From Parvibaculum sp. (GTDB taxonomy: Bacteria; Pseudomonadota; Alphaproteobacteria; Parvibaculales; Parvibaculaceae), in contig JAHBYL010000013.1 of NCBI GenBank assembly GCA_019635955.1, positions 1 to 64,000 on the forward strand: 64,000 nucleotides of DNA, given 5' to 3'. The number at the start of each line of letters is the position of its first letter. The first letter of the stretch is position 1. Below are positions 28,360 to 32,709 of this stretch, piece by piece. The notes under the pieces are model-generated. The model saw only the letters and a list, made by a program, of their open reading frames with translations, was not told the origin of the DNA and did no database searches. A program made the translations under genes and the position numbers.

Positions 28360-29856
28360 CTACTTCCCGACCTGCACGTCGCTCTTCCGTCCCAGCGCGC
28401 GCGCGAGCGCCGAGAGCCGCTTCGACACGATCTCGCCAAGCAACGCCTCGTATTTCTTTGGCACGACGAGGGTGACGGTGTTCTTCGTCACCTCGAAGCG
28501 CGTTTTCGGCAGCATGCCCATGGTCGCGCCCGACAGCGTGAAGGCGAGCCGAAGCGCGAGGCCGAGCACCAGCGCGCGCTCATGCTCCCGCTCGGTGATG
28601 AAGCCGGTGAGATTGCCGAGCAGTTCCGGCTCCCCCCTGCCCTCGTGGCGATGATAGCCGACGCGCGCAAGGAACAGCCTTCCCGGGTGATCCACGCCCG
28701 AAAAGGGCGCCAGCAGGATCTGTGTCATCGCGTGGTGCGCGCGGTAATCCGGATGCACATACCACCCGATGTCGGCAAGGATGCAGGCGGCGTGGCGCAG
28801 GCGCGCTTCCTCCGGCGTTTCGCCGAAAACGCCTTCCGCGAAAAGCGGTGCCGTCCATTTGAAGAACTCATCACCATGCTGCGGAAAACGCGCGAGGCGC
28901 CCGGCGAGATCGGTGCAACCCGCGATCAACGGATCCTTGGCCTGTTCCTTCTTGTCGAGCCGGTCGAAAAGAATGCCTTCGCGCAGGCCGTAGGCGGAAA
29001 TCACAACTTCCTTTGCCTTCAGGGCGCCGATCAGCTTGTCGAGCACCAGCGCGCCGAAGGGCAGCGCCTCGACACGGCGCTCCGAAACATCCGGTATCTG
29101 CGCCAGGGATTTAGGGCCGAGTCTTTCGATCACGCGCGAGATTTCCGACGCGTCGCGGGCGGGAATGACATAATGGTGCAGGACATGGATCGGATAGTTG
29201 CGTTGCGACATGTGGATGCGCGCCAGATTTCGCCAGACGCCGCCGACCGCATAAAGCCGCTTGCCCTGATGTTCCTTGAATAGCTTCTGCTCGCTCAGGG
29301 CGCGGTCGACCACGGCTTCGGCCTCGGCGAGGCTGCCATGCGCGAGGTCGATCAGCCGCAGCGGCCCGAGCGGCAGCGTGGCGCCCGGGCCGGACTTGCC
29401 GTTCGCAACGGGCACAAGTTCAAGGCTGCCGCCCCCAAGATCGCCGACAAGCCCGTCGGCATCCGGGATGCCGGAGAGGACGCCCTGCGCGGCGAGCCGC
29501 GCTTCGTCCATGCCGGAGAGAAGATCGATCGCGAAGCCGCAAATCTTCTCTGCCTGAGCGAGAAAGGCCGGACCGTCCTCGGCATCGCGAACGGCGGCGG
29601 TGGCCGCCACGATAAGTGTCTTCACACCGATCTGGTCCTTGAGGGCCATGAAGCGGCGCAGCGCATCGAGCGCGCGGACAATGCCTTTCGGGTCGAGACG
29701 GCCGGTGGAGGCGAGCGAGCGGCCGAGTCCCGCCATCACTTTTTCATTGAAGACGAGAACGGGGTTCCGCTCCGCCGCTGCATAGACGACAAGACGCACG
29801 GAATTCGATCCGACATCGACGATGCCGACGCGTCCGCCGGATTTGCCGCGGGTCAC
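28360..29856 (-). CDS. ppx: Exopolyphosphatase / Ppx-GppA phosphatase
   Basis: Hydrolyses terminal phosphates of polyphosphate and possibly pppGpp. The 498-residue protein has the actin-like ATPase blocks VGIVDVGSNSVRLVVY and GLVGDLGGGSLELV and an HD-like C-terminal region (LRHAACILADIGWYVHPDYR). It starts with GTG at 29856, preceded by GGAGG at 7 bp. It lies 30 bp downstream of ppk on the same strand, so synthesis and degradation of polyphosphate are probably co-transcribed. Its stop is 3 bp from the end of the convergent rnd gene. Confidence 0.93.
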   Translation of the reverse strand: MTRGKSGGRVGIVDVGSNSVRLVVYAAAERNPVLVFNEKVMAGLGRSLASTGRLDPKGIVRALDALRRFMALKDQIGVKTLIVAATAAVRDAEDGPAFLAQAEKICGFAIDLLSGMDEARLAAQGVLSGIPDADGLVGDLGGGSLELVPVANGKSGPGATLPLGPLRLIDLAHGSLAEAEAVVDRALSEQKLFKEHQGKRLYAVGGVWRNLARIHMSQRNYPIHVLHHYVIPARDASEISRVIERLGPKSLAQIPDVSERRVEALPFGALVLDKLIGALKAKEVVISAYGLREGILFDRLDKKEQAKDPLIAGCTDLAGRLARFPQHGDEFFKWTAPLFAEGVFGETPEEARLRHAACILADIGWYVHPDYRAHHAMTQILLAPFSGVDHPGRLFLARVGYHRHEGRGEPELLGNLTGFITEREHERALVLGLALRLAFTLSGATMGMLPKTRFEVTKNTVTLVVPKKYEALLGEIVSKRLSALARALGRKSDVQVGK

Positions 29857-29886: not shown

Positions 29887-32091
29887 TTATCCCGTCTTGA
29901 TGTCGAATTTGGGCGGGATGTTTTTCTTGAGAGAGGTGCCACGCCCGGAAAGGCTCGCATTGTTCATGAAATAGGTATGGGCGTTGAAAGGCTCTTCGCC
30001 CTCGCGCACGGTGATTCGCCGATAGACGCCGTCGGCCTGCAATTCGTAACTCTGCTGGTTGTCCTTGAGATTGGCAACCATGATCTGATCGAGCACCTGG
30101 TCGTGCACCGTCGGGTTCAGAATCGGGACCAGAACCTCGACCCGGCGGTCGAGATTGCGCGGCATCCAGTCGGCCGAGGCGATATAGACCTTCGCCTTGT
30201 CGTTCGGCAGGCCGTGCCCATTGCCGAAGCAGACGATGCGGGAGTGCTCCAGGAAGCGGCCGATAATGCTCTTCACACGGATGTTTTCCGAGAGGCCCGG
30301 AATGCCCGGCCGCAGGCAGCAGATACCGCGAATGACGAGGTGAATCTGCACGCCGGCCTGGCTTGCCTTATAAAGCTTGTCGATGATCGTTGCATCGACC
30401 AGCGAGTTCATTTTCGCCCAGATTGCCGCAGGGCGCCCCGCCTTCGCATGGGCGATTTCGGCGTCGATATCGTCCACCAGCCGCTTGCGCAGATTGACGG
30501 GCGAGACCGCCAGCAGTTCCAGCGATTTCGGTTCGGCATAGCCGGTGATGTAGTTGAAGACCTGCGAGGCATCGTGGGCAAGCCGCGGGTCGCAGGTAAA
30601 CATGGAGCAATCGGTATAGATTTTCGCCGTGACCGGGTGATAGTTGCCGGTGCCGAAATGGACATAGGATCGCAATTGTCCGCTCTCGCGCCGCACCACC
30701 AGCGATATCTTTGCGTGCGTCTTTAGCTCGATGAAGCCGAAAACGACCTGCACGCCGGCGCGTTCCAGGTTTCGTGCCCAGACGATGTTCGCCGCTTCGT
30801 CGAAGCGCGCCTTGAGCTCCACCAGCGCCGTGACGGACTTGCCTGCTTCGGCCGCCTCGATCAGCGCCTGCACGATGGGGCTGTCCTTCGAGGTGCGGTA
30901 GAGCGTCTGCTTGATCGCGACGACATCGGGGTCCGCCGCTGCCTGGCGGATGAACTGCACCACGACGTCGAACGACTCGTAGGGGTGATGGACTATGATG
31001 TCCTTGGAGCGGATGGCAGCGAAACAATCGCCGCCATGGTCGCGGATGCGCTCCGGGAAGCGCGCATTGTAAGGCGTGAACTTCAGGTCGGGACGGTCGT
31101 CCACGATGAGCTGGCTCGTCTGGGCAAGGCCGAGCAGGCCTTCGACGGAGACGAGCTCGCGTTCGCTGACGCCGAGTTCATGCACCACGAACTGGCGAAG
31201 CGAATCCGGCGTGCGCGCCTCGATCTTCAGCCGGATCACACTGCCGCGACGGCGGCGCTTCAGGGCGCTTTCGAAATAGCGCACCAGATCTTCGGCTTCT
31301 TCCTCGATTTCGATATCGCTGTCGCGAAGCAGGCGGAAAGCGCCTTGCCCGATCACCTTGTAGCCGGGGAAGAGCCTGTCGAGGAACAGACCGATCATAT
31401 TTTCAAGGCTGACGAAACGGATATCGCCATTACCGTCCCGAGTGGGCAAGCGGATGAAGCGCTCGACCTGTGTCGGGACCGGCAGCAACGCATCCATCAG
31501 CTTCCCATCTGCGATGCGGCGAAGCTGCAGAGCCAGCGCGAAGCCGAGGTTGGGGATGAAGGGGAACGGATGCGCGGGATCGATCGCGAGCGGCGTGAGA
31601 ACCGGGAAGACCTGTTCGAGGAAGCGCGTTTCGAGCCAGGAGAACTCGTCCTTCGTTACTTCCTCAGGCTCGATTACCGCGATGCCGTTTTCACGCATCT
31701 CCTTGCGCAGCGCGACCCATTGGCGCTGCTGCTCGCGCATCAGGTCGTTCGCCATGCTGTTGACGAGGTCGAGCTGCTGGGCGGGCGTGCAACCATCCTG
31801 GCTCAGCGTCGTCACGCCGGCGCTCACCTGCCCGCGCAGGCCTGCCACGCGGACCATGAAGAATTCGTCGAGGTTCGAGGCCGAGATCGAGAGGAAGCGC
31901 AGCCGCTCAAGCAGCGGATGGTTCGTGTTCTGCGCCTCTTCCAGCACCCGCAGGTTGAAGGCGAGCCAGGAGGCCTCGCGATTGATGAAGCGCTCCGCGC
32001 TCTCCATGCCGAGGGCCGGCAACCGCTCGACGGCAGGAGCCGGTTCGGGGACGACAGCCTCAATGGCGGGACTCTGCGGAGCGCTGGTCAT
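29887..32091 (-). CDS. ppk: Polyphosphate kinase 1
   Basis: Synthesises polyphosphate from ATP. The 734-residue length is typical. N-terminal domain [19 protein letters not shown] and [15 protein letters not shown]; catalytic region with [12 protein letters not shown], the autophosphorylated-His segment [11 protein letters not shown], then [16 protein letters not shown], and the late [15 protein letters not shown]. It is first in a ppk-ppx unit, and upstream lies a three-repeat Pho-box-like site, so phosphate-starvation control by PhoB is likely. Confidence 0.97.
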
Positions 32092-32141
32092 GAGATCACT
32101 TCTGCAAAAACGGGAATAAGTCTCTGCTATCGCTCAAGTTT

Positions 32142-32170
32142 ATGACAAACACATGACCAAGTCATGACCA
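32142..32170 (-). promoter_or_regulatory. Pho-box-like tandem repeat upstream of ppk
   Basis: On the minus strand three 7-bp units TGGTCAT, TGGTCAT and TTGTCAT occur with exact 11-bp period (ATGAC on the plus strand at 32142, 32153 and 32164). The known PhoB site is a direct repeat of CTGTCAT-like 7-mers with 4-bp spacers. It ends 50 bp before the ppk ATG. The divergent membrane-protein gene starts 72 bp away on the other side and might share it. Confidence 0.75.
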
Positions 32171-32241: not shown

Positions 32242-32709
32242 ATGGCGGGCATATCCCTGGGGCGGGTGGTTTTAGCGGGACTGGTGCTCCTGCATGCTGG
32301 ACTGCTCGTCTGGGCCCTGATGGGGCTCACGGAATGGCTGTTCGGCGCGGTGCCTTGGCCCGAAGTCACCAATCCGCTCTTTCCCCAGCCGGTGCTGCTT
32401 GGCCACTGGCTGTCGGTGATCGCGGCTTCTTTGGCCTTCCTGACCGGGCTTGCGCTTCGCTGGCCGGGTACGCCGCTTGCGGTGGCGCTCGGCTATGGGG
32501 CCATGGCCGTTGTCTGCCTTATCGAGACGACTCGATATCTCGTGCATGACGCCCGCTGGCTCGCCATGGCGGCGGAGTATGCGGCCTATCTCGCGGTCGG
32601 TTCCTGGCTGTTTCTCTCGACAACCGCGCGGCAGGTCTTCAGGCGCTCCGGAGCTAGAGCGGCATTTCGCCCTGACGGCCGAGGAGCTCCGCGGCGAGCG
32701 GCACCGTGA
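32242..32709 (+). CDS. Hypothetical four-TM membrane protein
   Basis: A 155-residue protein with four hydrophobic segments (about 7-29, 50-70, 77-95 and 107-127), a short basic tail and no recognised domain. A GGAGGGCGCC lies just before the ATG. The last 56 bp overlap the 3' end of the convergent hdaA gene, so the extreme C-terminus (low-complexity Arg/Ala/Pro) is dictated by antisense coding. It is divergent from ppk and may share its control region. Function unknown. Confidence 0.7.
   Translation: MAGISLGRVVLAGLVLLHAGLLVWALMGLTEWLFGAVPWPEVTNPLFPQPVLLGHWLSVIAASLAFLTGLALRWPGTPLAVALGYGAMAVVCLIETTRYLVHDARWLAMAAEYAAYLAVGSWLFLSTTARQVFRRSGARAAFRPDGRGAPRRAAP

What the first reader, a model, noticed from the sequence alone, without database searches (positions are those of the whole stretch)
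32142..32170. Three-repeat Pho box upstream of ppk-ppx
Seen: on the minus strand, TGGTCAT, TGGTCAT and TTGTCAT recur at exact 11-bp spacing, ending 50 bp before the ppk start. Known: PhoB binds CTGTCAT-like 7-mers separated by 4 bp, and ppk belongs to the Pho regulon in several proteobacteria. Inference: this operon is PhoB-activated, and the divergent four-TM protein at 32242 may be a co-regulated, undescribed Pho-regulon member.
Basis: partly seen in the sequence, partly recalled or inferred. Interest (0 to 1): 0.6.

Follow-up and report, generated by a model that had tools for sequence, protein, structure and literature searches.

The report
PhoB-type Pho box upstream of ppk
The three 11-bp repeats before the polyphosphate kinase gene are a real, conserved binding site of the ordinary kind that lets phosphate-starved bacteria switch on polyphosphate synthesis; it is a new instance of known biology, and the neighbouring membrane-protein gene is probably not under the same control.

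Summary
The repeats are real. On the minus strand TGGTCAT, TGGTCAT and TTGTCAT (32170-32142) lie 11 bp apart, 50 bp before the ppk ATG. An exact triple is expected 0.00017 times per window. A matrix from 59 E. coli PhoB ChIP-seq sites ranks the two overlapping repeat pairs 1st and 2nd of 127,966 positions; the better one (17.0) beats 58% of true E. coli sites and equals this genome's pstS (15.4) and plcP-like (16.7) sites. All 25 same-genus genomes keep the element, although repeat 1 is degenerate in many. The genome has a PhoB above the curated cut-off beside pst-phoU-phoR. In 48 of 79 alphaproteobacterial ppk loci a genus PhoB matrix finds its best site upstream of ppk, on the ppk strand. 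The likeliest reading is PhoB-activated ppk-ppx, as in Sinorhizobium. Two cautions: the narrow pstS/plcP matrix scores the site weakly, and Caulobacter ppk1 is starvation-induced without PhoB. The second inference fails. The divergent gene at 32242 occurs in 11 of 25 genus genomes, a tetR gene separates it from ppk in six of them, and no site faces it. Ordinary: a new member of a known kind.

The parts
32164..32170 (-). repeat 1, TGGTCAT
   Evidence: degenerate (GCAAT, GAAAT, TTCAT) in many genus sequences
32153..32159 (-). repeat 2, TGGTCAT (GTCA invariant in the genus)
32142..32148 (-). repeat 3, TTGTCAT; with repeat 2 the best E. coli PhoB-matrix hit of the window
32160..32165 (-). ATGACT, conserved; could act as a -35, 17 nt before TAAACT (inferred)
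32137..32142 (-). TAAACT, likely -10, 10 nt after repeat 2; TAnnnT invariant in 20 of 20 distinct genus sequences (function inferred)
32126..32131 (-). GATAGC, alternative -10, 10 nt after repeat 3; kept only in the closer relatives
29887..32091 (-). ppk1, polyphosphate kinase, 734 aa
   Evidence: NF003919, TIGR03705 above cut-off
28360..29856 (-). ppx-type exopolyphosphatase, 498 aa, 30 bp after ppk, probable operon
32242..32709 (+). divergent 155-aa hydrophobic protein, not part of the proposed unit; 3 clear hydrophobic segments
   Evidence: no Pfam or NCBIfam family; 30 of 49 differences from the sister species fall in third codon positions

Best explanation
The element is a Pho box that drives ppk-ppx. 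Under phosphate limitation PhoR phosphorylates PhoB; PhoB~P binds head to tail on the 11-bp repeats of the minus strand and recruits sigma-70 RNA polymerase to a -10 that starts 10 nt after a repeat (TAAACT after repeat 2, or GATAGC after repeat 3), so polyphosphate kinase rises when phosphate is scarce. Shown by computation: the repeats, their conservation, the match to PhoB sites, the presence of PhoB-PhoR-Pst. Inferred: binding, activation, which -10 is used, co-transcription of ppx.
For: E. coli PhoB ChIP-seq matrix (59 sites of PMC10294691): repeats 2+3 score 17.0 (rank 1 of 127,966), repeats 1+2 14.3 (rank 2), three units 31.3 against 16.3 for the next separate place; 58% of true E. coli sites score lower; own pstS 15.4 and plcP-like 16.7. 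Conserved in 25 of 25 genus genomes. PhoB: TIGR02154 364.9 bits, cut-off 296.2; DNA-binding domain matches 1gxp; present in 16 of 17 genus genomes searched. A matrix from genus pstS/plcP-like boxes finds its locus-best site upstream of ppk in 48 of 79 alphaproteobacterial loci, p<=0.01 in 46 of 79 on the ppk strand and 4 of 79 on the other; TA starts exactly 10 nt after the second 7-mer in 21 of 49 distinct sites, next-best offset 5. S. meliloti ppk is reported among low-phosphate, phoB-dependent genes (PMC3596328, PMC10315480).
Against: The matrix from the genus's own pstS and plcP-like boxes scores the ppk site 11.3 for three units against 27-44 for training sites, and its best two-unit pair is only 3rd in the window: A-rich gaps and T/C before GTC are missing. 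Gap bases between the repeats are as conserved as the repeats, and repeat 1 is degenerate in many relatives, which a plain Pho box does not predict. With E. coli-matrix sites the +10 spacing peak is weak (5 of 26). Caulobacter ppk1 is starvation-induced but PhoB-independent (PMC11208175). No expression or binding data.
Confidence: 0.8

Rival explanations
1. Another factor, for example another OmpR/PhoB-family response regulator, binds this conserved element, and ppk responds to phosphate or stress without PhoB, as ppk1 does in Caulobacter.
For: Conservation extends through the gaps and spacer; weak score with the genus pstS/plcP matrix; Caulobacter ppk1 is PhoB-independent; the whole extended motif occurs without mismatch only at ppk.
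Against: Best of the window with an experimental PhoB matrix and as good as own pstS; ppk across many Alphaproteobacteria has canonical boxes. Published ChvI (TTGC-N3-GCAA; N-GCC-N8-GCC) and CenR (TGA-N8-TGA) motifs read differently (compared by eye only).
Confidence: 0.13
2. An inverted repeat, ATGAC-N3-GTCAT (32153-32165), is the functional unit: a dimeric repressor operator or a terminator hairpin for the upstream gene.
For: CATGAC-TTG-GTCATG pairs on the minus strand and is listed as terminator-like.
Against: The dyad is broken in several relatives without compensation (ACGAATCCGTCAT, ATCACCCAGTCAC, ATATCTTGGTCAT); no T run follows; terminator-like hits are no more than chance (2 against 3.9).
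Confidence: 0.04
3. Chance repeats over an ordinary sigma-70 promoter (ATGACT-N17-TAAACT).
For: -35-like and -10-like hexamers are among the best kept columns.
Against: Spacer columns GTCA and TTTG are equally or nearly invariant; exact triple expected 0.00017 times; PhoB-matrix rank 1.
Confidence: 0.03

Closest known systems
Pho box at ppk of Sinorhizobium meliloti and other rhizobia (Pho regulon)
   Same: PhoB-type direct repeats, 11-bp period, same strand and position upstream of ppk; S. meliloti ppk listed with phoB-dependent genes (PMC3596328, PMC10315480)
   Different: Here three GTCAT units with unusual gaps; rhizobial sites have two units such as CTGTCAC-AGTT-CCGTCGT
E. coli phoA and pstS Pho boxes
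   Same: Tandem 7+4 units; -10 ten nt after a 7-mer as in phoA (phoA spacing from own knowledge); matrix match
   Different: G rather than T before GTC in repeats 1 and 2, and gaps not A-rich
Caulobacter crescentus ppk1 promoter
   Same: ppk1 of an alphaproteobacterium, phosphate-starvation-induced there
   Different: Induced by low cytoplasmic phosphate without PhoB (PMC11208175); that promoter was not read here

Membership tests
Pho box (PhoB binding site) | at least two direct CTGTCAT-like 7-mers, 11-bp period | tested here: met
   three units, exact spacing
Pho box (PhoB binding site) | score typical of experimentally mapped PhoB sites | tested here: met
   17.0, rank 1 of 127,966, above 58% of E. 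coli ChIP-seq sites
Pho box (PhoB binding site) | fits the PhoB consensus of the same genus (pstS, plcP-like) | tested here: inconclusive
   three-unit score best in window but below all training sites; only two training genes
Pho box (PhoB binding site) | conserved upstream of the orthologous gene in close relatives | tested here: met
   25 of 25 genus genomes
Pho box (PhoB binding site) | -10 element about 10 nt after the last used 7-mer | tested here: met
   TAnnnT invariant at +10 after repeat 2; same peak at other alphaproteobacterial ppk sites (21 of 49)
Pho regulon | PhoB, PhoR and Pst present in the genome | tested here: met
   PhoR model 318.6 bits, slightly under its 334.2 cut-off
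Pho regulon | PhoB-dependent induction at low phosphate | not testable with these tools
   no expression data
Pho regulon (gene at 32242) | Pho box facing the gene and kept with it | tested here: not met

The most novel reading that the evidence does not exclude
In this genus the ppk element has evolved away from the canonical PhoB box and is read by a second regulator, or by PhoB together with one, making it the operator of the still unidentified PhoB-independent phosphate control known for Caulobacter ppk1.
Probability: 0.08. Interest if true: 0.55.

Novelty: new member of a known kind. Interest (0 to 1): 0.2.

Why it matters
It places ppk-ppx in the predicted Pho regulon of Parvibaculum-like bacteria and shows that most sampled alphaproteobacterial ppk genes carry such a site. 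That sets them against Caulobacter, where ppk1 is controlled by cytoplasmic phosphate without PhoB, and so makes the change of control over polyphosphate synthesis testable. In itself it is expected biology.

Tried and rejected
The genus-only matrix looked at first like evidence against PhoB; the independent E. coli ChIP-seq matrix suggests that its narrow training (two genes) exaggerated the gap bases. Dyad and terminator readings rejected. Regulon search with the extended ppk motif found only ppk without mismatch. The second ppk of the bin (C131) was set aside as a probable actinobacterial contaminant contig. Yuan et al. 2006 and Lubin et al. 2016 were not held. The first orientation of minus-strand loci was wrong and corrected.

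Full report
What is there. The minus strand reads ...GGTTGGTCATGACTTGGTCATGTGTTTGTCATAAACTTGAGCGATAGCAGAG... ahead of the ppk ATG at 32091. The three 7-mers are at 32170-32164, 32159-32153 and 32148-32142, in exact 11-bp steps. The window comes from a 3.26-Mb, 201-contig assembly whose nearest named relatives are Parvibaculum and Rhodobiaceae MAGs.

More than chance. An exact triple is expected 0.00017 times in the window from the count of GTCAT, and it is the only match with up to 3 mismatches. The element is conserved in the genus: 23 of 24 readable genomes in the upstream stretch first taken, the 24th with a site further upstream, and the 25th (gene split over two contigs) on its other contig. 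The flanking intergenic columns are not conserved.

Is it PhoB? Two matrices were used. The first, from boxes upstream of pstS and a plcP-like gene in the genus, gives the ppk triple the best three-unit score of the window but below every training site, and ranks the best pair only 3rd with the 18-mer scoring. The second, from 59 sites of a published E. coli PhoB ChIP-seq study (PMC10294691), ranks the two overlapping pairs 1 and 2 of 127,966 positions, with 17.0 above 58% of true sites left out one at a time, and equal to this genome's pstS and plcP-like sites. One E. coli site, at csrA (TGTAATGTGTTTGTCATT), even shares the GTGTT gap. The first matrix was trained on two genes and penalises gap bases that real PhoB sites allow.

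Independent support. The first matrix never saw ppk, yet at 79 alphaproteobacterial ppk loci it finds a site upstream of ppk that no (or under 1%) control window of the locus reaches in 48, on the ppk strand, with p<=0.01 against shuffles in 46 and only 4 on the opposite strand. After those sites TA begins at exactly 10 nt in 21 of 49, with 5 at the next-best offset; this is the phoA spacing (from my own knowledge). With sites chosen by the E. coli matrix the peak is weaker (5 of 26). In the genus TAnnnT stands at that offset after repeat 2 in all 20 distinct sequences; in closer relatives GATAGC or CATAGC stands at the same offset after repeat 3. Which -10 is used is open, and repeat 3 may partly be the -10 of a two-unit box. 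The genome carries phoR, pstS, pstC, pstA, pstB, phoU and phoB in order on one contig, with a box before pstS, and its PhoB is above the curated cut-off.

Literature. S. meliloti ppk is listed with low-phosphate, phoB-dependent genes (PMC3596328, PMC10315480). Caulobacter ppk1 is an exception: phosphate-starvation-induced but PhoB-independent (PMC11208175). The Marinicaulis, Parvularculaceae and Oceanicaulis loci (L064, L076, L088) show no good site. So regulation has changed between lineages, and PhoB control here is likely but not proven.

The divergent gene. The 155-aa product is hydrophobic with three clear segments and perhaps a fourth, has no Pfam or NCBIfam family, and is a real gene (homologues at 63-90% identity, third-position changes). 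It occurs in 11 of 25 genus genomes. In four read in full a tetR gene lies head to head with it and between it and the ppk box, and two more show the same tetR end. The box stays in 14 genus genomes without the gene. No forward Pho box exists in the intergenic region (best + strand score 5.3 with the genus matrix). Co-regulation is therefore unsupported.

Verdict. A real, conserved, PhoB-type box on ppk-ppx: a new member of a known kind. The unusual gap conservation leaves a small chance of a second regulator.

Noticed in passing
G000:C131 (L154): Contig with ispD-, carD-like, phoU, regX3-like and a second ppk (48% identical to the window's) looks actinobacterial: probable contaminant of this bin (5.4% contamination). 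Judged from gene content, not tested by phylogeny.
   Followed up: partly
G000:C135:24030-24056 (L155): Three-unit PhoB-type box GTCACATAAACGTCATCGCTTTGTCAC upstream of a metallophosphoesterase-like gene (PlcP-like by inference; no Pfam hit for the fragment), divergent from an OmpR-type two-component system next to an eptA-like gene; conserved in the genus.
   Followed up: partly
G000:C101:27225-28265 (L172): pstS is 73% identical to a distant congener but only 47% to its 99%-ppk sister G002, although the DNA up to the gene start is 94% identical: replacement of pstS alone, or a chimeric assembly.
   Followed up: partly
L093, L095, L100, L103 upstream of ppk: A tetR gene, the homologue of the 32242 gene and a luciferase-like monooxygenase-type gene (named by eye) lie together upstream of ppk in several relatives, where others have hda.
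   Followed up: partly
window 32137-32165: Gap bases between the repeats (ATGACT, ATGTTTG) are as conserved as the repeats across the genus; not explained by a plain Pho box.
   Followed up: partly
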